From positions 1 through 42,633 of the forward strand of contig CACJPW010000004.1 in the NCBI GenBank assembly GCA_902595375.1: a stretch of DNA of 42,633 nucleotides. Direction: 5' to 3'. This stretch comes from an uncultured Pelagibacteraceae bacterium (GTDB lineage Bacteria > Pseudomonadota > Alphaproteobacteria > Pelagibacterales > Pelagibacteraceae). Position 1 is the stretch's first letter; the number at the start of each line of letters is the position of its first letter. Below, in pieces: positions 7,295-28,665 of this stretch. The position numbers and the translations under genes are program-made. The notes under the pieces were generated by a model. That model was not told the DNA's origin and ran no database searches. It worked only from the letters and a program-made list of their open reading frames with translations.

Positions 7295-7357
7295 TAAGAA
7301 ATTTTTGTGTTATAACACCTCTTCTAAAGAAATAATATATTAAACTATTAAAAATTG

Positions 7358-8446: not shown

Positions 8447-9222
8447 TGAAAAAAAAAAATATAGATTATTACGCTAATAGACTATCAACAGCATTTCTCA
8501 AAAATAAATTAATCTCACCAATACCGAACATATACTCAAAAAAGTTAGTAAATGCAGATAAATTCAGAAAGCTTTGTGAAAAAAAAATAAAAAAACCAAT
8601 AGCTGGTTTTAAAGCAGGCGGTACGGGTCTTGCTTTAATTAAAAAATTGAATGAAAAAGAGCCTTTTATAGCTTCGGTTTATAAGCACAATGTTTTAAAG
8701 AATAATCAAAAAATAAAGATAAATAAATATGTTTTAGGTGTTGAATTAGAGGTTTGTTATATAATTAAAAAAGATTTTTTCACTAATAAAAAAAAATTAT
8801 CAAAAAAAAATGTAAATAAGATAATTACACATATTGGACCTTGCATAGAAATTGCAGGTTATCGGCAAAAGAAAAAGGGTATAAAGTCTTTTGGTGATTT
8901 AAGCTCGGACTTTGGAGGAAATATAAAATTTGTTCTAGGAAAATTTAAAAAATATAAGAATCAAAATGTTAAAAATTTAAAAACATATATATCTAATAGG
9001 TCTGTATCGCAAAGAGTAATTGGAAACACCAATACTGTATATGGAGACCCCATAAACTCTCTTTTATTTGTTTTAAAAAAATTGAAAAAAGATAAGATTA
9101 ATCATAAAACTAACTTTTATGTTTTCACGGGTTCTACAGTTGGCGTTGTTCCAATTATTAGTAAAGGAACTTATACAGGTAATATTGAAAATCTTGGAAC
9201 CGTAAGAGCTAAAATTAGTTAG
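8446..9222 (+). CDS. 2-keto-4-pentenoate hydratase / FAH-like family protein
   Basis: This 258-residue protein resembles MhpD-type hydratases. It has GFKAGGTG (54-61), an acidic metal-binding segment VLGVELEVCYII (near 94), and a C-terminal VFTGSTVGVVPI followed by a GT-x(5)-ENLGTVRAKI block that matches the family's end. Members hydrate or decarboxylate 2-oxo acids using Mg2+. The substrate here cannot be told from sequence. It is rich in Lys and diverged. Translation is coupled to pfk by TAATG, an odd pairing, since these hydratases usually sit in aromatic-degradation operons. A role linked to sugar acid catabolism is only inference. Confidence 0.75.
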   Translation: MKKKNIDYYANRLSTAFLKNKLISPIPNIYSKKLVNADKFRKLCEKKIKKPIAGFKAGGTGLALIKKLNEKEPFIASVYKHNVLKNNQKIKINKYVLGVELEVCYIIKKDFFTNKKKLSKKNVNKIITHIGPCIEIAGYRQKKKGIKSFGDLSSDFGGNIKFVLGKFKKYKNQNVKNLKTYISNRSVSQRVIGNTNTVYGDPINSLLFVLKKLKKDKINHKTNFYVFTGSTVGVVPIISKGTYTGNIENLGTVRAKIS

Positions 9223-9430
9223 ATAAGAAATATCCACCAATTCCAATTAGAGCTATTGAGGCTATAATTTTTGTTTTTTTTAATCTTGTAGCTTTTTTTT
9301 CATTATGAACTTTTCTTTGAGACAAAAAATAAATATTTGAGGAATTCTTATTTCTAAATTTTGGCCTTAAAGGAGATGGGATTGTTTTGTTTTTTATTTG
9401 TTTAAATTTTTTTGGATTAATTTGTAACAT
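9215..9430 (-). CDS. Small hypothetical protein with one C-terminal membrane helix (71 aa)
   Basis: This 71-residue minus-strand ORF is very basic through residues 1-53 and ends in a hydrophobic helix (IIASIALIGIGGYFLSN, about 55-71). It would be a tail-anchored inner-membrane protein. It converges on the hydratase gene with an 8-base overlap, and its start lies about 65 bases from the Fur-regulated promoter reading the other way. No family was recognised. The charge-then-helix pattern favours a real gene over a chance ORF. Confidence 0.45.
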   Translation of the reverse strand: MLQINPKKFKQIKNKTIPSPLRPKFRNKNSSNIYFLSQRKVHNEKKATRLKKTKIIASIALIGIGGYFLSN

Positions 9431-9494
9431 TACTCATATAACTCGATTTGTCTTAAGTTATCAACAGTAAACACTACCCCTGGGTGCGTCAATA

Positions 9495-9542
9495 TTGCAA
9501 ATGATAATCATTATCAATATACTGTAAATGATAATCATTATC
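9495..9542 (+). promoter_or_regulatory. Iron-transport promoter with two tandem Fur boxes
   Basis: A promoter can be read as -35 TTGCAA (9495-9500), a 17-base spacer, and -10 TATACT (9518-9523). Two copies of AATGATAATCATTATC, the last 16 bases of the classical 19-bp Fur box, lie at 9500-9515 and 9527-9542. The full 19-bp boxes (9497-9515 and 9524-9542) each match consensus at 17/19. Box 1 fills the spacer and box 2 covers the expected transcription start. Binding of a Fur-type repressor with Fe2+ should block transcription of the Fe(III) transporter. A good ribosome site (AAGGG) precedes the ATG at 9560. Confidence 0.9.
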
Positions 9543-9559
9543 AATAATAAGGGTGATTA

Positions 9560-10579
9560 ATGAAAAAAACAATTATAATCAGCTATCTATTTTTGGTTGT
9601 ATTTGCTGCAAGTTTGTTTGCAAATGAGGTGAATATATTTAGCGCTAGGCATTATGACTCTGACATTCAGCTTTATGAAAAGTTCACTGCTAAAACGGGA
9701 ATAAAAGTAAACGTTGTGTCAGGAAAGTCAGGTGCTTTAGAGAAAAGAATAATAGAAGAGGGAGCTGATAGCAAAGCGGATCTATACATTACAGCAGATG
9801 CTGGAAGATTAGGTGCTTTTGAGGCTAACCTTCAAGGGGGACTAACAAGTGTAGCTATAAAATCTGCAGTGCCAAGTAACTTTAGAACATCAAAGTGGAC
9901 CGGTATAGCAAAGAGAGCTAGGATTGTATATTTTGCTCCAGAAAGAGTAAGTAGCGCAGAATTAGCTGGTTTAACATATGAAAGTTTAGCTGATCCAAAA
10001 TGGAAAGGCAGACTAGTAATTAGAGCCTCAAATAATATTTACAACCAATCACTTGTAGCTTCATTAATTAAAAATAATGGAAAAGGTAAAATTGCTGAAT
10101 GGTCAAAGGGTATGGTTTCAAATATGGCCAGATCTCCAAAGGGAAATGATAGAGCTCAAATACTAGCTGTTGCTGCAGGAGAAGCAGATATAGCAGTAGC
10201 TAACACTTATTACTTAGCACTTATGCTCTCTGGAAAAAAAGGACCAGAACAGCAAGCTGCTGCTAAAAAAGTAAAGCCTTTCTTTCCAAATCAAGATGGA
10301 AGAGGAACTCATATGAACATTAGTGGGGCTGGACTTGTAAAAGGAGCACCGAATAAAGCTAATGCAATAAAGTTAGTTGAGTTTTTATTAAGCGAAGAAG
10401 CTCAAAATCATATTGTTAATAATACTTTTGAGTATCCAATGATAAAAGGTGTGTCTCCACATCCACTTGTTGTTAATATGGGATTAGATTTTAAACAAGA
10501 TCTAAAAACTAAAGTTGTTAATTACGGTAAAAGACAAGCGGATGCTTTACAAGTAATGACAGCGGCAGGTTGGAAGTAG
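9560..10579 (+). CDS. fbpA: Fe(III) ABC transporter periplasmic binding protein
   Basis: This 339-residue protein has a signal peptide (residues 1-21, cleavage after SLFA). It belongs to the FbpA/SfuA/FutA ferric-iron binding family: it begins VNIFSARHYDSD and carries the tandem tyrosines of ANTYYLALM (Tyr217-Tyr218) plus Tyr32, which supply iron ligands in this family. The C-terminal half has the usual GRGTHMNISGAGLV block. It would capture ferric iron in the periplasm for the permease and ATPase downstream. The two Fur boxes upstream confirm the iron role. A micro-ORF and a 97-base spacer separate it from the permease. Confidence 0.94.
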   Translation: MKKTIIISYLFLVVFAASLFANEVNIFSARHYDSDIQLYEKFTAKTGIKVNVVSGKSGALEKRIIEEGADSKADLYITADAGRLGAFEANLQGGLTSVAIKSAVPSNFRTSKWTGIAKRARIVYFAPERVSSAELAGLTYESLADPKWKGRLVIRASNNIYNQSLVASLIKNNGKGKIAEWSKGMVSNMARSPKGNDRAQILAVAAGEADIAVANTYYLALMLSGKKGPEQQAAAKKVKPFFPNQDGRGTHMNISGAGLVKGAPNKANAIKLVEFLLSEEAQNHIVNNTFEYPMIKGVSPHPLVVNMGLDFKQDLKTKVVNYGKRQADALQVMTAAGWK

Positions 10580-10588
10580 ATAAAAAAT

Positions 10589-10759
10589 ATGAGTCGATCA
10601 ATAAAAAAAGAAGTCAACTTAAATAAATTAAAAACAGGTTGTTCGCCTTGTATTTCAGAAGCTAAAAAAATGGAGCAGAAAATATCCAATAGAGAGGTTT
10701 CTGAAATAAAAATTGAAGAAGTAAAAGTAATTGTATCTTCAATGTTTAAAAAAGATTGA
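10589..10759 (+). CDS. CxxC micro-protein inside the iron-transport operon (56 aa)
   Basis: A 56-residue ORF begins 9 bases after the binding-protein stop (ATG at 10589, TGA at 10757-10759). It has a basic N-terminus, a CSPC motif (Cys18-Cys21) and an amphipathic Lys/Glu-rich remainder, with no signal peptide or membrane helix. The CxxC pair suggests metal binding or redox function. Its place in a Fur-controlled operon makes an iron or Fe-S related role a reasonable guess, but no family was recognised. It is below the usual length cutoff of gene callers. Confidence 0.55.
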   Translation: MSRSIKKEVNLNKLKTGCSPCISEAKKMEQKISNREVSEIKIEEVKVIVSSMFKKD

Positions 10760-10856
10760 AAGTTTGACGTAAATTTCTCTGGCCTTAAATGTTAGCTTAA
10801 TTCTAAACTCAAGCAGCTTTAGCCAGCGAACTTTATATGATAACAAGGGCCGTTAA

Positions 10857-12473
10857 ATGACAAATTATAATATATGGTTATTTGGATCGCTGATTGTAGC
10901 TTCAGTAGTTGCTATGCCTATTATAACTGTTTTTTTTAGCTTCTTTACTGAGACAAGTAATTATTTTTATATTTTAAAGGAAACTTTTTTATTTGATTAC
11001 ATTTTTAACTCAATTACAATTTTATTATTTGTAATATTTTTTACTTTTATAATTGGAATTTTTTCAGCATACTTCGTATCTTTTTATGATTTTCCATTAT
11101 CCAACTTTTTTAGTTGGGCATTAATTTTATCATTTGCAGTTCCAGGTTACATTTATGCATTTTCAATAATTGCTTTTTTTGAAAATTACGGTACTGCATT
11201 TTCATTATTAACATTTCTATTTGGTGAAAATAATTATAATCGAATGATTCCAAAAATAGATGGATTAATTGGAGCTATAATATCTATATCGTTTTCTTTA
11301 TTTCCTTATGTTTATGTTTTAACAAGAGCATCATTTTATTATCAATCTAATAATTATATTGAGGTGGGAAAAAATCTTGGTCTTTCGTCAAAGGAAACCT
11401 TTTTAAGAATAGTTTTACCCTCTGCAAGACCCGCAATTATTGCGGGTTTAGCTTTAGTATCAATGGAATGTTTATCTGATTTCGGTACTGTATCTTTTTT
11501 TAGTGTCAATACACTTACAACTGCGATTTATAATTCTTGGTTATCTTTTGATGACTTAAATACAGCTAATCAGATATCTTTTATATTATTAATCTTCATT
11601 CTTTTACTTTTTTCGATAGAAATTTACTCAAGAAAAGAGGCAAAATACCATCAACCAGGTAGAGGGTTTAAACCAATCTCAAAAATCAAATTAACTGGAA
11701 GAATGTCTGTATTTCCAGTTGCTATTTGTTCTTTGATCTTTTTATTGAGTTTTATTTTTCCAGTTTCTCAAATGATTTATTGGACAGTGAAATTTCCGAA
11801 ATATATTCAAGACATTGATATATTCAAAATACACTTAAATACTTTGATGTTAGTGGGATTGGCTAGTGCTTTAATTGTATTTGTTTCTCTATTTATAAAT
11901 TATGGAAGCAGAATTTCAAAAAGCAAAATTTTAAATTACCTTACAACTTTTTCCATTTCTGGGTATGCAATACCAGGAGTTATTCTAGCAGTTGCCTTTA
12001 TTACTTTCTTTTCAAATTTAAGTGATTTTTTTACAAATAATTTCGATTTTAAAAGTTCAAAGAGTTTGTTTATAGGATCGATTTTTGGATTATTATTGGC
12101 ATATTTTATTAGATTTTTTTCTCTATCTTTTAACGGAATAAAGTCAAGTTATGAAAAAATTAATAATTCCATTGATGAAAGCGCTTATCTTCTTGGTTAC
12201 TCTAAGATTATTACATTTTTAAAAATTCATATTCCTTATTTAAGCACAAATATAATTTTAATCCTTTTATTGATTTCTTTAGAGATAATTAAAGAATTAC
12301 CAATGACAATGATTTTAAGGCCTTTTAATTTCGAAACCTTTGCTACCCAGGCCTATATCTATGCCTCCCAGGATCTACTAGAGGCTGCTGCATTACCATC
12401 TCTTTTTTTAATATTTTGGTCTACAATTTTGATACTTTTGTCATCTAGATATATACTTTCAAAAAAAAATTAA
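10857..12473 (+). CDS. fbpB: Fe(III) ABC transporter permease, fused two-domain type
   Basis: This 538-residue inner-membrane protein has about 12 hydrophobic segments arranged as two repeated permease halves (roughly 1-255 and 275-538), as in FbpB/SfuB. Each half has an EAA-type loop: EVGKNLGLSSKETFLRIVLP near residue 170 and ESAYLLGYSKIITFLKIHIP near residue 440. The 97 bases before it contain TTGACG-like and TATGAT-like elements and a possible imperfect hairpin (CTGGC/GCCAG outer pair), so an internal promoter or attenuator is possible but unproven. It is followed after 13 bases by the ATPase. Confidence 0.93.
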   Translation: MTNYNIWLFGSLIVASVVAMPIITVFFSFFTETSNYFYILKETFLFDYIFNSITILLFVIFFTFIIGIFSAYFVSFYDFPLSNFFSWALILSFAVPGYIYAFSIIAFFENYGTAFSLLTFLFGENNYNRMIPKIDGLIGAIISISFSLFPYVYVLTRASFYYQSNNYIEVGKNLGLSSKETFLRIVLPSARPAIIAGLALVSMECLSDFGTVSFFSVNTLTTAIYNSWLSFDDLNTANQISFILLIFILLLFSIEIYSRKEAKYHQPGRGFKPISKIKLTGRMSVFPVAICSLIFLLSFIFPVSQMIYWTVKFPKYIQDIDIFKIHLNTLMLVGLASALIVFVSLFINYGSRISKSKILNYLTTFSISGYAIPGVILAVAFITFFSNLSDFFTNNFDFKSSKSLFIGSIFGLLLAYFIRFFSLSFNGIKSSYEKINNSIDESAYLLGYSKIITFLKIHIPYLSTNIILILLLISLEIIKELPMTMILRPFNFETFATQAYIYASQDLLEAAALPSLFLIFWSTILILLSSRYILSKKN

Positions 12474-12486
12474 TATAATTATATTA

Positions 12487-13557
12487 ATGACTAATAATTT
12501 TTTTGAGATTCAAAACGGTAACTTTATTGCGAGTGAGAAAAATAAAGTAAATAATGTAAACCTAGTTATAGAAAAACAAGGTGAAGTTATTTCTTTGCTG
12601 GGCCCATCTGGAATAGGCAAAACCACTATATTAAGAACGATTGCAGGTTTACAAAAACTTAGCAAAGGAAAAATAAAACTGAGAGATAAAATTTTAGCAT
12701 CTGAAGAAATTCATGTTGAACCTGAAAAAAGAAATGTAGCACTTTCTTTTCAAGATAATTCTCTTTTTCCTAATTATAAAGTTATCGATAATATAAATTT
12801 TGGAAAAAAAAGATCTAATGGCCGTGGCTCAAGTATAGATGTTGAAGAAATAATCAATTTATTAAGAATTGAACCAATTTTAAAAAAATTCCCCCATCAA
12901 ATAAGTGCCGGAGAGGCGCAACGTGTTTCGCTAGCCAGATCTTTAATGTCTAAACCAGATTTATTATTATTAGATGAACCATTTTCAAATATAGATCAAA
13001 GTCTTAAGGAAGAAATACAGGTATCTGTTAAAAAACTTTTAAAAAGGATAAATTTGACAACAATAATAGTTACCCATGACTCATACGAAGCTTTTTCCAT
13101 GGCTGATAAATGCGGAATTATCTTGGATCAAGAGTTAAAGCAGTATGATATTCCATATAACGTTCATCATGAACCGAATTCTATTGCTGTAGCTAATTTT
13201 TTGAACAAGGGAATTTTTATAGATGTTAAGGTAATTGATAGTGAATGCGCTGTTCATAGACTGAAACATGATGAATTAGGTGAAATAAGGGGTAAATTAT
13301 CAAATAATTTTCCTTCAGGTTCTAAAGTCAAATTACTATTGCAACCTGAAGACCTAATACATGACGATCAAAGCAAACTAAAATTGGAAGTAGTTGATAG
13401 AAAATTTCGAGGAACAAACTTCATTTACACATTGAAGACTAAAAAAGGTGAGTATTTACCTGTATTTGTCCACTCTCATCACATACATCAACACGAGAAA
13501 TCTGAACAATTCGGCGTTAAGTCACCGATTTATATTGACCATTTAGTATGTTTTTAA
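12487..13557 (+). CDS. fbpC: Fe(III) ABC transporter ATP-binding protein
   Basis: This 356-residue ATPase has Walker A GPSGIGKT (39-46), Q-loop SFQDNSLFPN, Walker B D163-E164 and switch histidine in IVTHDSYEA, followed by a TOBE-like C-terminal region. The signature motif is variant, ISAGE (139-143) instead of LSGGQ, but the following AQRVSLARSL is normal. It energises ferric iron uptake through the preceding permease. It is the last gene of the iron operon and ends about 20 bases before tRNA-Arg. Confidence 0.92.
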   Translation: MTNNFFEIQNGNFIASEKNKVNNVNLVIEKQGEVISLLGPSGIGKTTILRTIAGLQKLSKGKIKLRDKILASEEIHVEPEKRNVALSFQDNSLFPNYKVIDNINFGKKRSNGRGSSIDVEEIINLLRIEPILKKFPHQISAGEAQRVSLARSLMSKPDLLLLDEPFSNIDQSLKEEIQVSVKKLLKRINLTTIIVTHDSYEAFSMADKCGIILDQELKQYDIPYNVHHEPNSIAVANFLNKGIFIDVKVIDSECAVHRLKHDELGEIRGKLSNNFPSGSKVKLLLQPEDLIHDDQSKLKLEVVDRKFRGTNFIYTLKTKKGEYLPVFVHSHHIHQHEKSEQFGVKSPIYIDHLVCF

Positions 13558-13576
13558 GTAAATATAATGATTATTA

Positions 13577-13653
13577 GCGCCCTTAGCTCAGCTGGATAGA
13601 GCATCGGTTTTCTAAACCGAGGGTCGTAGGTTCGAATCCTTCAGGGCGCGCCA
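13577..13653 (+). tRNA. tRNA-Arg (anticodon TCT)
   Basis: A 77-base cloverleaf with encoded CCA. The acceptor GCGCCCT pairs with AGGGCGC and the discriminator is G. The D-arm sequence is TAGCTCAGCTGGATAGAGCA. The anticodon stem is TCGGT/ACCGA with loop TTTCTAA, so the anticodon TCT occupies 13611-13613. The T-loop is TTCGAAT. It reads AGA, the main arginine codon of this AT-rich genome. Confidence 0.97.
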
Positions 13654-13664
13654 GTAAAACAAAT

Positions 13665-14729
13665 ATGAAAACTTATAAAATAGCAACAATAGCAGGTGAT
13701 GGTATTGGTAAAGAAGTAGTCCCAGAGAGTTTAAAAGTTTTAAGAGAAACTGCAAAAAAACATCAATTCAAATTACAATTTGATGAATTCGACTTCGCAT
13801 CATGTGATTATTACCAAAAAAAGGGAAAAATGTTACCTGATGACTGGAAGGATAAAATAGGAAATCACGATGCAATATTTTTCGGAGCTGTTGGTGATCC
13901 AGAAAAAGTACCAGACCATATAAGTCTTTGGGGTTCACTACTTCAGTTTAGAAGAGAATTTGATCAATATATTAACTTAAGACCAGTAAAACTATTTGAT
14001 GGAGTTCCATGTCCCTTAGCAAATAAAAAATCTGGAGACATAGATATGTTGATTATAAGAGAAAATACAGAGGGCGAATACTCTTCGGTCGGTGGACGAA
14101 TGTACAAAGACTCAGAGCGTGAAATCGTTATTCAAGAAACTATCATGTCTAGACATGGTATAGACAGAGTTCAAAAATTTGCTTTTGAATTAGCTATTAG
14201 CATGAACAGAAAAAAAGTAACTAATGCAACAAAATCAAATGGAATTTCAATTACCATGCCTTATTGGGACGAGAGATTTAATTTAATTAAAAAAAAATAT
14301 CCAAATATTAAGACAGATCAATTTCACATAGATATTTTAGCAGCAAGATTTGTCCTTAATCCAGAGTTATTTGATGTTGTTGTAGCCTCAAATTTATTTG
14401 GTGATATTCTATCAGATCTTGGCCCAGCATGTACAGGCACAATAGGTATTGCTCCATCCGGCAACATAAACCCAGAAAAAAAATTTCCTTCTTTGTTTGA
14501 GCCAGTACATGGATCAGCGCCAGATATCGCTGGTAAAGGGATTGCTAACCCAGTCGGTCAAATATGGTCTGGTGCTATGATGTTGGACCATCTAGGTGAA
14601 AAAGAAGCATCGCAAACAATTGTAAGCTCGATTGAAAAAACTTTATCAAAAAAAGAGAATAGAACTTTAGATCTTAAAGGTAGTAATAATACAGTTGGTT
14701 GTGCTAAAGCTATTATAGATAATATTTAA
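13665..14729 (+). CDS. Tartrate dehydrogenase / D-malate dehydrogenase-like decarboxylating dehydrogenase
   Basis: This 354-residue member of the isocitrate/isopropylmalate dehydrogenase family has IAGDGIGKEV (8-17), WGSLLQFRREFDQYINLRP around residue 89, ENTEGEYSSVGGR and the metal/cofactor region LFEPVHGSAPDIAGKG. The WGSLLQFRREFDQ and GVPCPLA segments are those of the tartrate/D-malate branch (TtuC/DmlA) rather than LeuB. Likely activity is NAD-dependent oxidation, with or without decarboxylation, of D-malate, tartrate or a related 2-hydroxy acid. It starts 11 bases after tRNA-Arg and runs into zapE after 6 bases. Confidence 0.85.
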   Translation: MKTYKIATIAGDGIGKEVVPESLKVLRETAKKHQFKLQFDEFDFASCDYYQKKGKMLPDDWKDKIGNHDAIFFGAVGDPEKVPDHISLWGSLLQFRREFDQYINLRPVKLFDGVPCPLANKKSGDIDMLIIRENTEGEYSSVGGRMYKDSEREIVIQETIMSRHGIDRVQKFAFELAISMNRKKVTNATKSNGISITMPYWDERFNLIKKKYPNIKTDQFHIDILAARFVLNPELFDVVVASNLFGDILSDLGPACTGTIGIAPSGNINPEKKFPSLFEPVHGSAPDIAGKGIANPVGQIWSGAMMLDHLGEKEASQTIVSSIEKTLSKKENRTLDLKGSNNTVGCAKAIIDNI

Positions 14730-14735
14730 ATTTTA

Positions 14736-15782
14736 ATGCAAATAAAATCGCTGCGAGAAGAATTTATTCTTTTTTGTAAAAAAAATAAGTTTGAAGAAAA
14801 TATTGATCAAATTAAAATTATAGAAAAAATTTCTGAATTTTTTAAAAAAAAAATTTTTTTGAACTTCTTCAAAAAATCAAATAAAAAAAAATGTTTTTAC
14901 TTATTTGGTGGAGTTGGTGTTGGAAAAACAATGATCTTTGATTTTGCATTTAACCATTTAGAATGTAAAAAACAAAGAACTCATTTTAATGAATTTATGA
15001 TTAGCTTTCATAATCACCGCCACAAAAAAAAAAGTAAAAAAGTAGTTTCAATAGACAGTTTTGTAAAAAAACTAAAAAAATATAAATTGATATATTTGGA
15101 CGAATTTCAAGTCACTAACATAGTTGACGCTATGATATTAGGAAATCTTTTTAAAAAAATATTTGATGAGGGTATTAAAGTATTTATAACTAGCAACGAG
15201 AGACCTGATGATCTTTATAAAGATGGATTACAAAGAAGTCAATTTCTTCCCTTTATAAAAATATTGAAAAGTAATTCAATAATACAAAAATTATCTATTG
15301 AAAATGATTACAGAAAATTAGTTTTAGGAAAATTAATTAGAACCTTATATCCATTAAATAAAAAAACAAAATTCAAAATAAATAAAATATTTAGGAGTAT
15401 TACAAAAAATAAAATTAAAGCTTCTTTAGATATAAAAATAAAAGGGAGAAACTTTAAAATCATCAATTATTACGATGGAATAGCAAGATTTGATTTTAAA
15501 GAGTTATGTGACAAAAATGTAGGAGCAGAAGATTACATTGAGATATCTAATAAATGTAAGTTTATGATAATTGAAAATATCCCCAAATTTAATGAAGAAA
15601 ATTCCAACTTACAAAATAGATTTATTACTTTAATAGATATTTTATACGAGAAAAAAATTCCCTTATTATTGTCATTAGAAACATATCCAAATAAAATTGG
15701 ATCATCTTTAAAATTACGTAAACCTTTTAAAAGAACATTGAGTCGAATTTACGAGTTAACATCTAAAAAAATCGTTAATTAA
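14736..15782 (+). CDS. zapE: AFG1/ZapE-family ATPase
   Basis: This 348-residue P-loop ATPase has Walker A GGVGVGKT (58-65), Walker B IYLDEFQV (Asp122-Glu123), the sensor segment VFITSNERPDDLY and the LQRSQFLPFI block typical of the AFG1/ZapE family. In E. coli, ZapE associates with the cell-division ring; mitochondrial AFG1 relatives act in respiratory-complex quality control. The N-terminal 50 residues are shorter and more basic than in enterobacterial homologues. It overlaps the convergent tautomerase gene by 4 bases. Confidence 0.9.
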   Translation: MQIKSLREEFILFCKKNKFEENIDQIKIIEKISEFFKKKIFLNFFKKSNKKKCFYLFGGVGVGKTMIFDFAFNHLECKKQRTHFNEFMISFHNHRHKKKSKKVVSIDSFVKKLKKYKLIYLDEFQVTNIVDAMILGNLFKKIFDEGIKVFITSNERPDDLYKDGLQRSQFLPFIKILKSNSIIQKLSIENDYRKLVLGKLIRTLYPLNKKTKFKINKIFRSITKNKIKASLDIKIKGRNFKIINYYDGIARFDFKELCDKNVGAEDYIEISNKCKFMIIENIPKFNEENSNLQNRFITLIDILYEKKIPLLLSLETYPNKIGSSLKLRKPFKRTLSRIYELTSKKIVN

Positions 15783-16222
15783 TGATTTTCTAATTTTCTT
15801 AATTTTATTTTTAAAGATTTTGGTAATTTTCTAAACCATTTTTTTTCACTACCAGCTTCAGGTAGTATTTCACCATACTCAATCATTTGTTCCGGTTTTA
15901 AATCTAAAATATATATCCATAAATTCTCCTTTTTTACTTTAGTTAATTCGATAATTTGGTCTCTCAAAGTAGTAATTAGTTTTTTTTTCACTGAGCTAGA
16001 TCTCCCAGCTCTAATTTGTCCGTGTAAAAAAAATTGTTTCTCTTTTATAATTTTACCTCCTATAAAATGATCATTTTTTTTACTTTTTTTAAAAATAACT
16101 TGAGCAAAATAAGTATTAGCACCTGTAACTTCGTTATGAACTTTTGTAATTATTTTTGCAATTTTCTCTTTTTTAATTTTATTGAGAGTGACATTTGAAA
16201 ACGATAATTTATATGTAGGCAT
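15779..16222 (-). CDS. cis-CaaD-like tautomerase-superfamily protein
   Basis: This 147-residue protein belongs to the larger-subunit tautomerase branch that includes cis-3-chloroacrylic acid dehalogenase and Cg10062. After removal of Met, the N-terminus is Pro1. Counting from it, His28, Arg70, Arg73 (in IRAGR), Tyr103 and Glu114 fall at exactly the numbering of the six catalytic residues described for cis-CaaD, with no gaps. Length (146 mature residues against about 149) also fits. Dehalogenase, hydratase and tautomerase activities all occur in this group, so the natural substrate is not predictable. It is convergent with zapE and divergent from aapJ. Confidence 0.85.
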   Translation of the reverse strand: MPTYKLSFSNVTLNKIKKEKIAKIITKVHNEVTGANTYFAQVIFKKSKKNDHFIGGKIIKEKQFFLHGQIRAGRSSSVKKKLITTLRDQIIELTKVKKENLWIYILDLKPEQMIEYGEILPEAGSEKKWFRKLPKSLKIKLRKLENH

Positions 16223-16367
16223 AAATTAATTTTATAGTGTAATAAAAATTTTCAAATATCTATTTTACGGTTGTATTAAGGCATATTTAGTTACAAGATA
16301 TTTTATTTACTAAATATAGTATTCAATGAAGTTGAAATTATAGTTTAATTGAAACATAATATTTAAC

Positions 16368-16403
16368 TTTTGAAATTCATATTTCAAAAATATTGTTAAC
16401 AAT
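16368..16403. promoter_or_regulatory. Two adjacent palindromes upstream of aapJ
   Basis: A perfect 9-bp inverted repeat, TTTTGAAAT (16368-16376) and ATTTCAAAA (16381-16389) around TCAT, is followed after two bases by the 12-bp palindrome ATTGTTAACAAT (16392-16403). Both end just before the ribosome site AAGAGGGA and the ATG at 16428. They could be an operator, or hairpins in the leader RNA. The rest of the 205-base spacer (16223-16427) shows only AT-rich sequence. Confidence 0.5.
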
Positions 16404-16427
16404 AAAAAAAAAGAGGGAATCATAAAT

Positions 16428-17474
16428 ATGATCAAATCATTTAAGACTTGGATTTTGGTTGGATTAGCATCTTTGCTATTGGTCGCTTGCGGTCAAGGCG
16501 GCGGTGGTGCTGGTTCTAAAAAATCTAAAACTTTAGAAAACACAAAAAAAGCCGGTTTTGTAAAATGTGGAGTTTCACAAGGTTTACCTGGTTTTTCTAA
16601 CGCTGATGAAGCAGGAAACTGGACTGGTATAGATGTGGATGTATGTAGAGCTGTTGCAGCTGCTGTTTTAGGAGACGCTGATAAAGTTAAATATACACCC
16701 CTAAGTGCAAAAGAAAGATTTACAGCTTTAACGTCTGGAGAAATCGATGTTCTTGCACGTAACACAACTTGGACATTATCAAGAGATGCTGACATTGGTT
16801 TAACATTTGTTGGTGTAAACTTTTACGATGGCCAAGGTTTCATGGTAAGAAAAAATTCTGGAATTAATTCTGTGAATGATTTCAAAAACGGTATTTCCGC
16901 TTGTACAAATACAGGTACAACTACTGAGCTTAACATGAGAGACTTCTTTAATTCTAAAAACATAAGCTACGAGCCGATTGCGTTTGAAAAAGCTGACGAA
17001 GTTGTTCAAGCTTATGATGCAGGAAGATGTGATACTTACACTACTGATAAATCTGGTTTAGCGGCACAAAGAACTAAAATGTCAAACCCAGATGAGCACA
17101 AAGTATTGCCTGAAACGATTTCTAAAGAACCTTTAGGTCCTGTTGTAAGACAAGGGGATGCAGTATGGGAAGATATCGTAAGATGGTCTCTAAATACTAT
17201 GATCGAAGCTGAAGAATATGGTGTTAATTCATCTAACGCTTCAAGCCTAAAAGACTCTGAGAACCCAGCTATAAAGAGATTAGTTGGTTCTGAAGGTGAA
17301 TTAGGTGCTGCTTTTGGTCTAGATAATGACTGGAGCTTAAGAATTATCGAGCAAGTTGGTAACTACGGTGAAAGTTATAAAAAACACATAGCTGATACTG
17401 GAATTTTACCTAACAGAGGTCCTAATCAATTATGGACCAAAGGTGGAATTCTTTACGTGCCACCAGCAAGATAA
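16428..17474 (+). CDS. aapJ: General L-amino-acid ABC transporter binding protein
   Basis: This 348-residue protein is the periplasmic receptor of the AapJQMP/BztABCD-type system. It contains GVSQGLPGFSNADEAGNWTG, DVDVCRAVAAAVLGD, TFVGVNFYDGQGFMV and C-terminal LPNRGPNQLWTKGGILYVPP, all strong family marks. The signal peptide ends in a lipobox (LVAC, Cys21) followed by a Gly-rich spacer, so it is predicted to be a membrane-anchored lipoprotein. It is followed by a strong hairpin before aapQ. Codon use is the less AT-rich kind, indicating high expression. Confidence 0.95.
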   Translation: MIKSFKTWILVGLASLLLVACGQGGGGAGSKKSKTLENTKKAGFVKCGVSQGLPGFSNADEAGNWTGIDVDVCRAVAAAVLGDADKVKYTPLSAKERFTALTSGEIDVLARNTTWTLSRDADIGLTFVGVNFYDGQGFMVRKNSGINSVNDFKNGISACTNTGTTTELNMRDFFNSKNISYEPIAFEKADEVVQAYDAGRCDTYTTDKSGLAAQRTKMSNPDEHKVLPETISKEPLGPVVRQGDAVWEDIVRWSLNTMIEAEEYGVNSSNASSLKDSENPAIKRLVGSEGELGAAFGLDNDWSLRIIEQVGNYGESYKKHIADTGILPNRGPNQLWTKGGILYVPPAR

Positions 17475-22525: not shown

Positions 22526-22891
22526 ATGGAAGAAAACTTTAACATTCACTTAGGTAAAAAGTTAAGAATGCGAAGATTATCTTTAGGTTTAACCCAAACA
22601 AAAGTTGCTCAAGCTATAAATGTTACATTTCAGCAGATTCAAAAGTATGAAAAGGGCACAAATGGGGTTAGTTCTAATAGATTAATGCAATTATCTCAGT
22701 TTTTAAAAGTTCCAATAATTTATTTTTTTGAAGATTATAGAGAATTTAAAGACATGAGCTCGAATAATGAAATAAATGATGATTTAAATTATTCTTTTTT
22801 AAGCAGAACATTTTCTTCTTTATCACGAACTCAGAAAGATAAAATTTTACAAATTTTAAGCAATACATCTAAATTTGAAAAAGTTGGCTAG
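22526..22891 (+). CDS. XRE-family transcriptional regulator
   Basis: This 121-residue protein has an N-terminal helix-turn-helix of the Cro/CI type: LGKKLRMRRLSLGLTQTKVA, then INVTFQQIQKYEKG (about 9-67). A short C-terminal part (FSSLSRTQKDKILQIL) may mediate dimerisation. It looks like the small XRE regulators conserved in alphaproteobacterial chromosomes. A TATAAT at 22501-22506 and ribosome site GGGAG precede the ATG. Targets are unknown. It lies just outside the left end of the restriction island, so it is probably not part of it. Confidence 0.85.
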   Translation: MEENFNIHLGKKLRMRRLSLGLTQTKVAQAINVTFQQIQKYEKGTNGVSSNRLMQLSQFLKVPIIYFFEDYREFKDMSSNNEINDDLNYSFLSRTFSSLSRTQKDKILQILSNTSKFEKVG

Positions 22892-22892
22892 T

Positions 22893-22968
22893 TGGCTCCT
22901 CGGGCAGGACTCGAACCTGCGACCAATTGATTAACAGTCAACTGCTCTACCAACTGAGCTACCGAGGA
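22893..22968 (-). tRNA. tRNA-Asn (anticodon GTT)
   Basis: The minus strand gives a 76-base cloverleaf beginning TCCTCGG and ending CCGAGGA-G-CCA. The D-arm is TAGCTCAGTTGGTAGAGCA, the anticodon loop CTGTTAA carries GTT, and the T-loop is TTCGAGT. The encoded CCA lies at 22893-22895, two bases after the XRE gene. Confidence 0.96.
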
Positions 22969-23016: not shown

Positions 23017-23061
23017 TGGAGGCCACGCCCAGAATCGAACTGAGATAAAAGGATTTGCAAT
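23017..23061 (-). repeat. Displaced 3' fragment of tRNA-Cys (att-like direct repeat, left copy)
   Basis: This 45-base stretch matches 44/45 the 3' half of the intact tRNA-Cys at 28592-28636, from the CCA end through the T-arm and variable region to the anticodon. The single mismatch (23043, A for G) breaks a T-stem pair, and after 23061 similarity stops, so it is not a functional tRNA. This is the pattern left when an element integrates at the 3' end of a tRNA gene: the old 3' end stays behind and the tRNA is rebuilt at the other boundary. Confidence 0.9.
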
Positions 23062-23183
23062 ATTCTGGTTTCACAATATCTGTTCTCTCTGGTGCTCTCT
23101 AGCACTATTTCATAGGTAAAATTCATCATCCGTAGTTTCAATTTAAATATATATATTGAAAAATCTATCTTAAAAATTACTAC

Positions 23184-23205
23184 AAACCAGTCCTTAAACC
23201 AGTCC
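23184..23205 (+). repeat. Paired ACCAGTCC repeat, left end of island
   Basis: AAACCAGTCC occurs twice in direct orientation (23184-23193 and 23196-23205), a 12-base period, just upstream of hsdM. A matching pair in the same orientation and with the same period lies after hsdR. It could be a recombinase arm-type site, or an operator, since the second copy ends about where a -35 element would be. Confidence 0.75.
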
Positions 23206-23224
23206 CTATAACTAATAAATCTGA

Positions 23225-23230
23225 TATACT
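23225..23230 (+). promoter_or_regulatory. Putative -10 of hsdMS, suggesting a leaderless transcript
   Basis: TATACT at 23225-23230 would place the transcription start at about 23237, next to the ATG at 23238. No Shine-Dalgarno sequence precedes this ATG, so the mRNA may be leaderless. The -35 position is occupied by the ACCAGTCC repeat rather than a TTGACA-like element. Confidence 0.4.
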
Positions 23231-23237
23231 TATTTAT

Positions 23238-25562
23238 ATGTCTTCGAGTTTAACCTATAAAAAAATTGCTAATTACGTCTTTAATTTAGCAGATGACACT
23301 TTAAGGGGATCTTTCAGAAGACATGAATACGGAAACGTAATAATCCCATTCACTGTTCTTAAAAGATTGGACTCTATACTTGAGCCTGATAAACAAAATA
23401 TAATTGATTTATATAAAAAATGGAAAACTAAATCAAAAAATTATGAGGAAATAATTTTAAATAAATCAAAAGTTAAATTTTTAAATTATTCAAATTTTTC
23501 ATTAGATGTTTTAAAAAAAGATCATCAAAATATTAAAAGAAATTTCACAAAATATCTTGATAGCTTTAGCGAAAATGTAAAAGATATTCTTCAAAACTTT
23601 GAAATACCAAAGATAGTAGAAAAACTTGATAGAACAGATAGGCTTTATGGAGTAATAAGTAAATTTAGTGCAATGGACCTATCTCCAAAGTCTGTAAGCA
23701 ATCATGAAATGGGACTACTATTTGAAGAGGTGCTAAGATTTAGCAATGAACTTGCTAATGAGACTAGTGGAGAACATTATACACCAAGAGATATAGTTGA
23801 ACTTTTAGTCTCGTTAATATTCGCTCCAGAGAAAAAAAATTTTTTAAAATCAAACAAGGTAACATCTATTTATGATCCCTGTTGTGGCACAGGCGGAATG
23901 CTTACTATTGGAAAAAAATGGATAAATCAAAACTTAAATAAAACTGCAAAAGTGTTTATGTGCGGTCAAGAATTACTCCCAGAAGCCTTTGCAATTTGTA
24001 AAGCAGATATGCTCATAACGGGTGAAGATGACAGAAATATAAGAGGGCCTATAAGCACTCTTTCTAAAGATCAATTTAGTAGAGAAAAATTTGAATACAT
24101 GATTACAAATCCGCCATTCGGAGAAGATTGGGAAGAGGATAAAAACGCTGTGTATGATGAGTCAAAAAAAGTTGATTCTCGTTTTCCAGCTGGATTACCT
24201 CGAATATCAGATGGGTCTTTACTTTTTTTACAACACATGATTTCCAAAATGGAGAAGAAAAATTCCAGAATCGGGGTAATTTTTAATAATTCTCCATTAA
24301 ATAATGGAGAGGCCGGTCAAGGTGAAACAAAAATTAGAGAATGGATTATAAAAAATGATCTACTAGAAACAATAATAGCTTTACCAGATGATATGTTTTT
24401 TAATACACCTATACATACTTTTATTTGGATTATTACTAATAAAAAAGACAAAAAAAGAAAAAACAAAATTCAATTAATTAATGCCGAAAATTTTTTCGTA
24501 TTACTGAGAAAAAGACTTAATAGTAAACGAAAAGAAATTTCAAAAGAAAATAAAGATAAAATACTCAAATTATACGATGATTTTAAAGAAAATGAATTTT
24601 CAAAAATATTTGATAATGACTATTTTAGATATAATGAGATCCATTTTGTGGAAAATACAAAAGTAAAGAAAAAGATTAAAAAAGTAATAAAAACAACAAA
24701 AATTAATCAAATTGACGAGATAATTAATAAAGAGATAAAAATTCACTTTCCTAATTCAGAACTTAAGAAAGATTATCTTAAAAAGGGTTATGAAATAAAT
24801 TTTCAGGAAATATTTTTTAAATACAGAAAATTTGAAAAAGTAGATCAAATAGATAATAAAATAAAATCTATTAGTCAAAAAATAGATGAAATAAACAATA
24901 TTAATTCAAAAATAAAATTAAATAATTTTGATAAAAAATCTTTAAAAAAAACTGGAATTCAATGGATGCAATTTATCCCTGATACTTGGCAATCAGATAA
25001 AATAAGAAACATTTTTCATTTTTCTAAAGAAAAAATAGGGGAGGCAAAAGATCAAAAAGTTTTATCACTCACTCAAACTGGTCTTAAAATTAGAGATACA
25101 AGTAAAAACGAAGGACAGTTACCTGATAGTTTTGACAAATATGCAATAGTTAGAGTTGGGGATATAGTAATGAATCCGATGGATTTGATAACTGGGTGGG
25201 TGGATAAATCAATTTATGAGGGGATTATAAGCCCAGCCTATTTTATATTGAGACCAAAAAAAAATTATGAAAAATATACAGATGTATTTCTTATTCAATT
25301 ACAAAGATTCTATCTAGAAAAAATTTTTCTCCCATATGGAAAAGGTGTTTCTTACGATTACAGATGGACACTTCAGCCAGAAAAAATGGGGGATTTTGAG
25401 TTAGTGTATCCTCCTGAAAAAGATATACAAAAATTTATGCAAGATTTAAATATTGTATTAAGAAATGAGAAAGAATTACTTAAATTATATAAAGAATTGC
25501 AAGAAATGACTAAATCAAGAATTATTTCAATTATGAGTAATTCATTTAATTATGAGAAATAA
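23238..25562 (+). CDS. hsdM: Type I-like DNA methyltransferase fused to a half-size specificity subunit (HsdM-HsdS)
   Basis: This 774-residue fusion begins with the HsdM N-terminal helical domain (about 1-150), followed by an N6-adenine methyltransferase domain with SAM motif DPCCGTGG (213-220) and catalytic NPPF (291-294). A Lys-rich, partly coiled-coil linker (about 430-565) leads to an HsdS-like part from residue 571: TGIQWMQFIPDTW opens a single target-recognition domain (about 571-735), and one helical spacer (ELLKLYKELQEMTKSRI) ends the protein. Standard HsdS has two such domains. There is no separate hsdS. Two fusions might pair to read a symmetric site. The stop abuts the hsdR start with no gap. 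Confidence 0.9.
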   Translation: MSSSLTYKKIANYVFNLADDTLRGSFRRHEYGNVIIPFTVLKRLDSILEPDKQNIIDLYKKWKTKSKNYEEIILNKSKVKFLNYSNFSLDVLKKDHQNIKRNFTKYLDSFSENVKDILQNFEIPKIVEKLDRTDRLYGVISKFSAMDLSPKSVSNHEMGLLFEEVLRFSNELANETSGEHYTPRDIVELLVSLIFAPEKKNFLKSNKVTSIYDPCCGTGGMLTIGKKWINQNLNKTAKVFMCGQELLPEAFAICKADMLITGEDDRNIRGPISTLSKDQFSREKFEYMITNPPFGEDWEEDKNAVYDESKKVDSRFPAGLPRISDGSLLFLQHMISKMEKKNSRIGVIFNNSPLNNGEAGQGETKIREWIIKNDLLETIIALPDDMFFNTPIHTFIWIITNKKDKKRKNKIQLINAENFFVLLRKRLNSKRKEISKENKDKILKLYDDFKENEFSKIFDNDYFRYNEIHFVENTKVKKKIKKVIKTTKINQIDEIINKEIKIHFPNSELKKDYLKKGYEINFQEIFFKYRKFEKVDQIDNKIKSISQKIDEINNINSKIKLNNFDKKSLKKTGIQWMQFIPDTWQSDKIRNIFHFSKEKIGEAKDQKVLSLTQTGLKIRDTSKNEGQLPDSFDKYAIVRVGDIVMNPMDLITGWVDKSIYEGIISPAYFILRPKKNYEKYTDVFLIQLQRFYLEKIFLPYGKGVSYDYRWTLQPEKMGDFELVYPPEKDIQKFMQDLNIVLRNEKELLKLYKELQEMTKSRIISIMSNSFNYEK

Positions 25563-28487
25563 ATGACTAAAATTTATTCTGAAAAAGATTTTGAAAATCA
25601 CTTTGAAGAGGGATTAAAGAGTATTGGTTTTAAAAAAAAAATTAATTCAAGCTACAATGCCAAGTTAACTTTGTTAGAAGAAGATTTAATTGAATTTTTA
25701 AAAGAAACACAATTAAAACAGTATAAAATTGTTGAAAAAATTTTTAAGGATCAAACCAATAAAGTTATTTGCGAAAAAATATCAGACAAACTAAATTCAC
25801 TAGGTGTCTTAGAAGTATTAAAAAATGGCCTTGGATTTAATGGAGCTCGGTTCGATCTAGTTTACTATGAACCAAATAATAATCTCAATATTGAATTATC
25901 AAAATTATACAATCAAAATATTTTCACATTTATTCGTCAAGTTTATTTTTCCACAAGGAATAAAAGATCAGTTGATACCGTAATTTTTTTAAATGGAGTC
26001 CCAATAATCACAATTGAGTTGAAAAATTCTTTAACAGGACAAACTGCTATTGATGCAGTTCAACAATATATAAAAGATAGATCAATAACTGAGGATTTAT
26101 TTAAATTTAAAAGGTGTATTGTACATTTAGCAGTTGGAAATGAAGAAATTTATATGACAAGTAAGTTAGATTCAGAGAAAACTGAATTTCTTCCTTTTAA
26201 TAAGAACATTATAAATCCAATAAATCCTAGAGGACATAAAACTTCATATTTATGGGAAGAAATATTAAAAAAAAATCAAATTTTAGATATCATACAAAAT
26301 TACCTATTTGAAAGAAAAGATAAAAATAGACATGATAAAAGTTTTAATGAGGTTTTAATATTTCCTAGATATCATCAAATAGATGCAATTAATAAAATTA
26401 AAAAAGATATTTTAAAAAATGGTACTGGAAATAAATATCTAATTCAACACTCTACAGGTAGCGGAAAATCATACACTATTTCTTGGTTAGCCTTTCAATT
26501 TTTAACGTTGTTTGATAATAATAATAAAAGATATTTTGACTCTGTGATAATAGTAACTGATCGAAAAAGTATCGATAAACACTTAACAAAAACATTATTT
26601 GATCTCAATAAAAAGCTTAACTTAGTTCATGCTACCGAAAAAGAAAATTCAAAAACACTAAAAGATTATATTGAAGGGGGTAAACCAATAATAATTTCGA
26701 CAATTCAAAAATTTCCAAGAATTTCAAATTTTATTTCAGGTATTGACGGTAAAAAATTTGCAATTATTATCGATGAGGTTCACTCATCACAATCAGGAGA
26801 ATATTCAAATCATGTCATTAAGTCTCTGTCATCAGCAAATAAGGAACAAGCTCAAGATGACGATGGAACTGAAGATTTGACAAATATTGATAAATTAGTG
26901 GTCGATGAAATAAGAAAAATAAAAAATTCAAATCATATTAGTTATTTCGGTTTTAGTGGTACTCCAACAAAAAAAACATTAGAAACTTTCGGTACAAAAA
27001 ATAAAATTTTAAATAATATTTCATTTACCTCTTTTCATGAGTACACAATGAAACAAAGTATACAAGAAAAATTTACGTTAGATGTCCTTAAAACCTATAC
27101 AACATATGAAAGGTACTTTACGATAAATCAAAAAATACATGAAGATAAATTACTTCCAAAATCAAAAACAAAAACTTTATTAATAAAAAAAGTTGATTTA
27201 GACAAAAAACCAATAGAGTCAAAAACTAAAATAATTATAGATCATTTTTTAAACTGTACTGAAAAAAAAATAGAGGGGAAAGGCAAGGCAATTGTAGTCA
27301 CAAGATCAAGACTTCATTGTGTAAAATATAAACATGAAATAGATAGGCAAATTAAATTACTAGGACTTAAATATAAAACTATTGCAGCTTTCAGTGGATC
27401 GTTAGAGGATAAAGAAACACAAAAAATTTACACAGAATCGTCAATAAACGAATTTGACTCAAAAAAAATTGAGGAATTTTTTAAACAAGATAATTATAAA
27501 TTTTTAATAGTTAATAATAAATTCCAGACAGGATTTGATGAGCCTTTGCTTCATACAATGTACGTAGATAAAAAAATGGATGGTTTACAATGTGTCCAGA
27601 CATTAAGTAGGCTCAATAGAACGTGCAAGGCTAAGACTGATACAGCTGTTATTGACTTTGTTAACACACCTGACAGTATCAAAACTTCTTTTCAACCATT
27701 TTACAAAAGTATTATTTTAAGTGAACAGTCTGATCCCAATCAACTTTATACGACTGAATTAAATATCAAAAAATATAAAATTTTTTACGAGGAAGATATA
27801 GATAATTTAATTACAATTTTTTTTAGTAAAAACAAAAAACAAGAATTGATTCAACCTATTTTAGACAAGTGTGTTGAAAACTTTGACAATCTTTCAGATG
27901 ATGATAAAAAAAATTATATTGATTTTATAAATTTATATTTGAATAGCTACCCTTTCTTATCAAATATTGCTAATTTTTATGATGTTAAGCTTGAAAAACT
28001 TTTCATCTTTCTAAAACATTTAGTAAAAAAAATTAGGATAGTCGAAAATGATTTTGATTCTGATAATATTCAATCTTATGTAAATCTTGAAGATTTAAAA
28101 TTACAGAAAAAGTTTGAAGGGCAAATAATTTTAGAAAATGAAGATGTATTAGTAAAACCATCAGATTTTGAGACAATAAGAAAGATAGAGGATGATAAAG
28201 CCCCTTTATCAATCATTATTAAAACTTTAAATGAAGCTTATGGATCAACAGATTTAGATGAAAAATCCAAAAATGATTTAAATCAAATATTTGGTGATTT
28301 AAAAAAGAATCAAAATTTATCCAATGCATTAAAAAATGAAAATAATACCGAATATAACAAGATACTTTTATTGAATGATTTTTTTGAAAATGCAATATCA
28401 AACCTTCCAGATAAAAACTTACCCCTATATGAAAATATGATCAAAAATAAATCTGATTTAATAAAAAATTTAATGAAAATTTTGTAA
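25563..28487 (+). CDS. hsdR: Type I restriction endonuclease subunit R
   Basis: This 974-residue restriction and translocation subunit has an N-terminal PD-(D/E)xK nuclease domain with Asp138 and E152-L-K154 (in IITIELKNS), then a QxxxY-like VQQYIKDR. A superfamily-2 helicase follows: Walker A TGSGKS (298-303), DEVH box (404-407), FGFSGTPT motif III, and a C-terminal RecA domain with VTRSRLHC, NKFQTGFDEP and QTLSRLNR. The last ~250 residues are helical and would contact the methylase. All catalytic residues are present, so it looks active. It starts immediately after the hsdMS stop and ends 4 bases before the right ACCAGTCC pair. Confidence 0.94.
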   Translation: MTKIYSEKDFENHFEEGLKSIGFKKKINSSYNAKLTLLEEDLIEFLKETQLKQYKIVEKIFKDQTNKVICEKISDKLNSLGVLEVLKNGLGFNGARFDLVYYEPNNNLNIELSKLYNQNIFTFIRQVYFSTRNKRSVDTVIFLNGVPIITIELKNSLTGQTAIDAVQQYIKDRSITEDLFKFKRCIVHLAVGNEEIYMTSKLDSEKTEFLPFNKNIINPINPRGHKTSYLWEEILKKNQILDIIQNYLFERKDKNRHDKSFNEVLIFPRYHQIDAINKIKKDILKNGTGNKYLIQHSTGSGKSYTISWLAFQFLTLFDNNNKRYFDSVIIVTDRKSIDKHLTKTLFDLNKKLNLVHATEKENSKTLKDYIEGGKPIIISTIQKFPRISNFISGIDGKKFAIIIDEVHSSQSGEYSNHVIKSLSSANKEQAQDDDGTEDLTNIDKLVVDEIRKIKNSNHISYFGFSGTPTKKTLETFGTKNKILNNISFTSFHEYTMKQSIQEKFTLDVLKTYTTYERYFTINQKIHEDKLLPKSKTKTLLIKKVDLDKKPIESKTKIIIDHFLNCTEKKIEGKGKAIVVTRSRLHCVKYKHEIDRQIKLLGLKYKTIAAFSGSLEDKETQKIYTESSINEFDSKKIEEFFKQDNYKFLIVNNKFQTGFDEPLLHTMYVDKKMDGLQCVQTLSRLNRTCKAKTDTAVIDFVNTPDSIKTSFQPFYKSIILSEQSDPNQLYTTELNIKKYKIFYEEDIDNLITIFFSKNKKQELIQPILDKCVENFDNLSDDDKKNYIDFINLYLNSYPFLSNIANFYDVKLEKLFIFLKHLVKKIRIVENDFDSDNIQSYVNLEDLKLQKKFEGQIILENEDVLVKPSDFETIRKIEDDKAPLSIIIKTLNEAYGSTDLDEKSKNDLNQIFGDLKKNQNLSNALKNENNTEYNKILLLNDFFENAISNLPDKNLPLYENMIKNKSDLIKNLMKIL

Positions 28488-28491
28488 TCAA

Positions 28492-28511
28492 ACCAGTCCC
28501 TTGACCAGTCC
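28492..28511 (+). repeat. Paired ACCAGTCC repeat, right end of island
   Basis: ACCAGTCC at 28492-28499 and 28504-28511 repeats in direct orientation with a 12-base period, the same arrangement as the pair before hsdM. It lies between the hsdR stop and tRNA-Cys. The remaining spacer (to 28591) has a short GAGTC/GACTC inverted repeat and no ORF. Confidence 0.75.
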
Positions 28512-28591
28512 TTGGTGTACATTTAAAGTTTATGTTCAATTTGAGTCGAAGTGTTTTTGACTCCAAAGCGTTGTGTATCAACGATTATCTC

Positions 28592-28665
28592 TGGAGGCCA
28601 CGCCCAGAATCGAACTGGGATAAAAGGATTTGCAATCCTCTGCGTAACCATTCCGCCACGTGGCC
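28592..28665 (-). tRNA. tRNA-Cys (anticodon GCA), island integration site
   Basis: On the minus strand a 74-base cloverleaf starts GGCCACG, pairs with CGTGGCC, and ends T-CCA (CCA at 28592-28594). The anticodon loop ATTGCAAAT region carries GCA. The T-arm is CCCAG-TTCGATT-CTGGG. Its 3' 45 bases are repeated at 23017-23061, marking it as the site used by the island. The tRNA itself remains complete. Confidence 0.95.

What the first reader, a model, noticed from the sequence alone, without database searches (positions are those of the whole stretch)
23017..28636. A 5.6-kb restriction island integrated at tRNA-Cys, with no integrase
The 45-bp direct repeat (44/45) between the displaced fragment at 23017-23061 and the 3' half of the intact tRNA-Cys at 28592-28636 is the classic footprint of tRNA-targeted integration. 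The cargo is only a restriction system. In a streamlined genome, such a minimal defence island that depends on an integrase elsewhere is unusual, and it suggests a swappable defence slot.
Basis: partly seen in the sequence, partly recalled or inferred. Interest (0 to 1): 0.75.

Follow-up and report, generated by a model that had tools for sequence, protein, structure and literature searches.

The report
Integrase-less swappable tRNA-Cys cargo islands
A small restriction-enzyme island sits in the tRNA-Cys gene of an ocean bacterium of the SAR11 family, and relatives carry other cargo, or nothing, between the same built-in attachment ends, so this looks like a cargo capsule that must borrow a recombinase from another mobile element.

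Summary
A 44/45-nt copy of the 3' part of tRNA-Cys lies at 23017-23061, the intact gene at 28592-28665, and only a type I restriction system (HsdM fused to a half HsdS, plus HsdR) lies between. Joined flanks align without a break to empty sites in relatives; 97 of 114 genomes of the genus with a detectable tRNA-Cys match have tRNA-Asn and tRNA-Cys next to each other. Other relatives (all Pelagibacteraceae, SAR11) hold different cargo between the same ends: nuclease/TerB/coiled-coil genes, lipoprotein clusters, or a zinc-finger protein. None has an integrase. The distal pair starts 123-124 nt from the tRNA fragment in 6 of 6 islands although the spacer is only 54-75% identical. The same paired-repeat design lies next to the integrase of SAR11 satellite-type elements; in one genome an integrase-bearing satellite and integrase-less cargo elements with identical arms stand in tandem at tRNA-Met. 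Best reading: non-autonomous islands, integrated by a satellite-type tyrosine integrase supplied in trans. The cognate tRNA-Cys integrase was not found. The slot is swappable, but not only for defence.

The parts
23017..23061 (-). displaced 3' part of tRNA-Cys; the island-distal att core, originally the host's own tRNA 3' part
   Evidence: 44/45 identity to 28592-28636; aligns through the junction to empty sites
23062..23101 (+). conserved island end next to the core (TTCACAA...CTCTGGT), 85-92% identical among ACCAGTCC-type islands
   Evidence: alignments
23186..23205 (+). distal paired arm-type repeats ACCAGTCC-TTAA-ACCAGTCC, 124 nt from the core
23222..23230 (+). extended -10-like promoter TGATATACT ending 7 nt before the hsdMS ATG; similar box in G018, G141, G056
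   Evidence: sequence; function inferred, and the consensus scan found no full sigma-70 site there
23238..25562 (+). hsdMS: type I methyltransferase fused to a half-length specificity subunit (774 aa)
25563..28487 (+). hsdR: type I restriction subunit (974 aa), motifs intact
28492..28511 (+). proximal paired arm-type repeats ACCAGTCC-CTTG-ACCAGTCC, 80 nt from the tRNA 3' end
28592..28665 (-). intact tRNA-Cys(GCA), 3' part (28592-28636) brought by the island, 5' part from the host; crossover region in the anticodon stem-loop
   Evidence: mechanism inferred from the repeat limits
22893..22968 (-). tRNA-Asn, host flank; directly beside tRNA-Cys (median 39 nt) in empty relatives

Best explanation
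The stretch is a non-autonomous, integrase-less island inserted in tRNA-Cys. Its two ends are complete attachment sites: a tRNA-Cys 3' copy that rebuilds the gene, plus paired arm-type repeats inside each end, laid out as in the attachment sites of SAR11 satellite-type tyrosine integrases. Shown: site-specific insertion, empty and alternatively filled sites, conserved end architecture, absence of an integrase from every island of this kind read. Inferred: a tyrosine integrase of that family, brought by a transient helper (a phage satellite or similar), binds the arms and recombines at the anticodon loop, so cargo travels without its own recombinase. Between visits the island is expressed as ordinary cargo; here a type I restriction system that should cut unmodified phage DNA (inferred from homology).
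For: Empty configuration in 97 of 114 genus genomes and unbroken alignment of joined flanks, 86.7% over 631 nt. Paired ACCAGTCC occurs at 4 places in 297 family genomes (0.06 expected from composition), all beside tRNA-Cys; further Pelagibacterales places in genome contigs, again all beside tRNA-Cys. Distal arms at 123-124 nt in 6/6 islands of two arm classes while spacers are 54-75% identical. Same cargo with different ends (G018 versus G141; G306 versus G301) and same right end with different cargo (window versus G301). Satellite-type integrases of the family carry paired repeats of 11-nt period just upstream in 7/11 (background 2%) and in 26/40 viral relatives (background 11%). Parallel at tRNA-Met in G056: satellite with integrase, AAA ATPase and small terminase, followed by integrase-less elements with the same CTGACACA arms, each 42-43 nt from the tRNA copy. 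G018, 98% complete, has an island but only one tyrosine recombinase of Xer size (325 aa) and no resolvase.
Against: No integrase with ACCAGTCC or ACTGGCACG arms, or with a tRNA-Cys 3' half beside it, was found in viral contigs, phages or genomes. Excision was not observed. Two islands lack the shared promoter-like box. Several occupants of the interval have no tRNA fragment or arms at all.
Confidence: 0.62

Rival explanations
1. Decayed element (CIME-like relic): an integrase-bearing element inserted at tRNA-Cys, lost its integrase by deletion, and the ends are fossils that no longer move.
For: CIMEs are a described outcome of element decay (PMC5704250). A clearly decayed end exists in G307.
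Against: Arms and their 123-124 nt spacing are kept while the spacer has diverged to 54-75%; four cargo types and two arm classes, none with an integrase remnant; cargo and ends are reshuffled.
Confidence: 0.2
2. Cargo is exchanged mainly by homologous recombination between the conserved tRNA-Asn side and tRNA-Cys side, as in replacement islands; the att ends are passengers.
For: The interval also holds cargo without fragment or arms (G084, G089, G205, G217, G197, G215); ends and cargo occur in different combinations.
Against: It does not explain the arm repeats, their fixed distance, or the perfect reconstruction of the tRNA; island cargo starts right after the arms.
Confidence: 0.13
3. HTVC019P-type pelagiphage integrase, which targets tRNA-Cys, mobilises the islands.
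For: Same tRNA; the phage att copy and the island repeat overlap in the anticodon stem-loop; HTVC022P integration at tRNA-Cys is published (PMC12753301).
Against: The phages carry the 5' half, the islands the 3' half; phage arm-like repeats CAACTATCCTC are absent from island ends and ACCAGTCC is absent from the phage stretches read.
Confidence: 0.04
4. The resident housekeeping Xer-type recombinase moves the islands.
For: It is the only tyrosine recombinase detected in G018.
Against: No dif-like site was recognised (not tested by a dedicated scan); paired arms point to an arm-binding integrase, which Xer proteins are not (general knowledge).
Confidence: 0.01

Closest known systems
CIME (cis-mobilizable element; defined in PMC5704250)
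   Same: attL and attR kept, no integrase or transfer gene, tRNA-type target
   Different: CIMEs are described as decayed relics moved by accretion with a related ICE or IME; here a recurrent set of cargo types shares intact ends and no related ICE or IME was seen
Tycheposons and other marine satellite elements (PMC10872708, PMC11389934)
   Same: small cargo elements at tRNA genes of streamlined marine bacteria, exchangeable content
   Different: tycheposons are characterised by a tyrosine recombinase; these islands have none
CALIN cassette arrays and MITEs (hitchers, PMC11389934)
   Same: recombination sites kept, recombinase supplied in trans
   Different: not integron attC sites or transposon ends, but tRNA core plus arm repeats of a tyrosine integrase
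HTVC019P-type pelagiphage prophage site (HTVC022P, HTVC021P)
   Same: same tRNA-Cys, crossover region in the same anticodon stem-loop
   Different: opposite tRNA half, other arms, phage carries its own integrase
Type I restriction-modification system
   Same: HsdM and HsdR domains and motifs
   Different: no separate hsdS; a half-length S region with one recognition part is fused to HsdM, unlike family relatives G252 and G288, where M and S matches lie in separate open frames

Membership tests
tRNA-targeted genomic island | intact tRNA at one end, displaced fragment of the same tRNA at the other | tested here: met
tRNA-targeted genomic island | empty site in relatives | tested here: met
tRNA-targeted genomic island | integrase gene inside the island | tested here: not met
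CIME | both att sites kept, no integration or transfer genes | tested here: met
CIME | mobilised in cis after accretion with an integrase-bearing element | not testable with these tools
   only a parallel at tRNA-Met in G056
tycheposon | tyrosine recombinase in the element | tested here: not met
phage satellite | integrase, replication and packaging genes | tested here: not met
   the window island has only hsdMS and hsdR; met in the tRNA-Met element of G056
HTVC019P-type pelagiphage integration site | same tRNA half and same arm repeats | tested here: not met
Type I restriction-modification | M and R subunits with conserved motifs | tested here: met
   both proteins score below the NCBIfam equivalog/subfamily cut-offs
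Type I restriction-modification | S subunit with two target recognition domains | tested here: not met
   one half-length S region fused to M
satellite-type integrase attachment site | paired 8-9-mers of 11-12 nt period beside the tRNA copy | tested here: met
satellite-type integrase attachment site | a cognate integrase with the same arm sequence | tested here: inconclusive
   not found for tRNA-Cys in the collections scanned

The most novel reading that the evidence does not exclude
SAR11 populations share a pool of integrase-free cargo capsules whose only mobile part is a pair of attachment ends, moved in trans by integrases of phage satellites: a third tier (phage, satellite, hitcher) that delivers exchangeable genes, restriction systems among them, to a fixed tRNA-Cys dock in one of the most abundant bacterial lineages.
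Probability: 0.4. Interest if true: 0.78.

Novelty: new variant of a known kind. Interest (0 to 1): 0.62.

Why it matters
How streamlined SAR11 cells, with almost no recognisable mobile elements, gain and swap accessory genes is an open question. A defined dock, defined end sequences and a candidate integrase family make trans-mobilisation directly testable. It also puts a restriction system, rare in this family (6 of 294 genomes have an HsdM relative), in the tRNA gene that an abundant temperate pelagiphage group uses as its own integration site.

Tried and rejected
Helper searches: paired ACCAGTCC and ACTGGCACG in viral contigs gave almost only coding-sequence or repeat matches in richer-GC contigs, and one intergenic low-GC hit (L193) was in an unrelated phage without integrase or tRNA in the part read. 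The full tRNA-Cys att pattern and the core-plus-end pattern gave no viral hits. Extra integrases in the genus (G044, G209 at tRNA-Leu; G223 near tRNA-Pro; G215 prophage at a tRNA-Asn fragment) have no such arms. Pelagiphage integrase rejected as helper. The wide integrase alignment A1 had no stretch fit for a scan; the sub-alignment A2 gave 80 viral loci, of which the 44 scanned have no tRNA-Cys piece and no such arm pair beside the integrase. hsd relatives in G170, G252 and G288 show no tRNA or arms nearby. Base composition does not mark the island as foreign: GC3 0.17-0.18 against 0.13-0.20 in host genes.

Full report
What is there. tRNA-Cys is intact at 28592-28665(-); 23017-23061 repeats its 3' part at 44/45. 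Between them lie only hsdMS and hsdR, motifs intact. HsdMS is a methyltransferase with a half-length specificity region; it would probably work as a dimer on a palindromic split site (inference from known half-S behaviour).

It is an insertion. Joining the window's flanks at the repeat gives a sequence that aligns without a break to tRNA-Asn/tRNA-Cys in relatives, e.g. 86.7% over 631 nt. Of 114 genus genomes with a detectable tRNA-Cys match, 97 have the two tRNA genes within 90 nt of each other, 14 (the window included) have 0.3-11 kb between them, and 3 are unresolved (positions).

The ends are attachment sites. Both island ends hold two ACCAGTCC repeats of 12-nt period, the only such pairs in the genome. 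In 297 family genomes the pair occurs at four places, all next to tRNA-Cys, against 0.06 expected from base composition. The pattern scan of 85 thousand species genomes added further Pelagibacterales hits, again all at tRNA-Cys; the other hits were scattered over unrelated taxa and were not followed up. A second arm class, ACTGGCACG, marks both ends of the island in G056 and one end in G141; the exact pair occurs once in 294 family genomes, at that island. In all six left ends available the arms start 123-124 nt after the tRNA fragment, although the spacer between is only 54-75% identical and host flanks are 79-87% identical. That points to selection on position and sequence of the arms, as expected of integrase arm sites. 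Proximal arms lie 46-47 or 80 nt from the tRNA.

Cargo is exchangeable. Cargo types between these ends: restriction system (window); SNase + TerB + two coiled-coil membrane proteins (G018; partly seen on broken contigs in G285 and G141); clusters of small lipoproteins (G301, G306, G345); a treble-clef zinc-finger protein with a weak nuclease-domain match (G056). The window and G301 share the longer right end but not the cargo; G301 and G306 share cargo but not the right end; G018 and G141 share cargo but not the arm class. In the window, G018, G141 and G056 a TGATATACT-like box follows the left arms, 6-7 nt before the first ATG in three of them; a leaderless cargo promoter carried by the end is my inference.

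No integrase. None of the islands encodes one. G018 is 98% complete and has one tyrosine recombinase of Xer size and no resolvase. In the window's own genome no tyrosine recombinase was found, but a third of it is missing.

A parallel case. In G056, tRNA-Met is followed by an element with a tyrosine integrase, an AAA_25 ATPase and a small terminase subunit, i.e. a phage-satellite-like element, then by a 1.4-kb element with two membrane proteins and no integrase, then by a third. The downstream copies share 55-56 nt of tRNA-Met, and each copy is followed 42-43 nt later by paired CTGACACA arms. Relatives of this integrase occur in 11 of 287 family genomes, some beside tRNA-Met, tRNA-Arg, tRNA-Ser or tmRNA, with paired 8-mers of 11-nt period just upstream in 7 of 11 (background 2%) and in 26 of 40 viral relatives (background 11%). 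The tRNA-Cys islands have the same design with their own arm words, so I infer an unseen integrase of this family as their helper.

Pelagiphages. HTVC021P, HTVC022P and relatives carry 39-49 nt of the other, 5', part of tRNA-Cys next to their integrase, overlapping the island repeat in the anticodon stem-loop; integration of HTVC022P at tRNA-Cys is published (PMC12753301). Their arm-like repeats are CAACTATCCTC, absent from the islands. Phage and island therefore use the same gene but probably not the same integrase, and could occupy opposite sides of it.

Limits. No excision data, no cognate integrase, one incomplete own genome, single-cell or metagenome assemblies for most relatives. Several other fillings of the interval carry no tRNA fragment or arms, so homologous recombination may also act there. 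In the literature held, I found no description of this island family; most subscription papers are not held, including the original tycheposon paper.

Noticed in passing
L229 (G056:C2:30000-49000), 8667-16454: Tandem array at tRNA-Met: satellite-like element with integrase, AAA ATPase and small terminase, followed by two integrase-less elements with the same paired CTGACACA arms.
   Followed up: partly
L115 (phage HTVC019P), 6001-6075 and 10294-10308: HTVC019P has only a short anticodon-loop core at its att site but carries a tRNA-Cys-like gene elsewhere (89% identical to the window's): candidate for tRNA-dependent lysogeny, described for actinobacteriophages (PMC10865867), here in a pelagiphage.
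   Followed up: partly
L174 (G197) 6287-11025 and L176 (G215) 5893-10614: 10-11 kb fillings of the same tRNA-Asn/tRNA-Cys interval share a caspase-domain protein, a trypsin-like protease and a protein with a weak neurotransmitter-gated-channel match (Pfam run on the G197 copy only), an odd set that could be a cell-death or defence cassette.
   Followed up: partly
L171 (G307), 396-530: Decayed copy of the island left end (degenerate tRNA-Cys fragment and following motif) in front of a small ORF.
   Followed up: partly
L177 (G215:C15), 7663-9162: Prophage-like contig with a tyrosine integrase beside a 40-nt tRNA-Asn fragment: a SAR11 prophage at tRNA-Asn.
   Followed up: no
window 22526-22891: HTH_3 regulator beside tRNA-Asn looks like a conserved host gene, present beside the filled sites read here; not part of the island although it resembles defence-associated HTH proteins.
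   Followed up: partly
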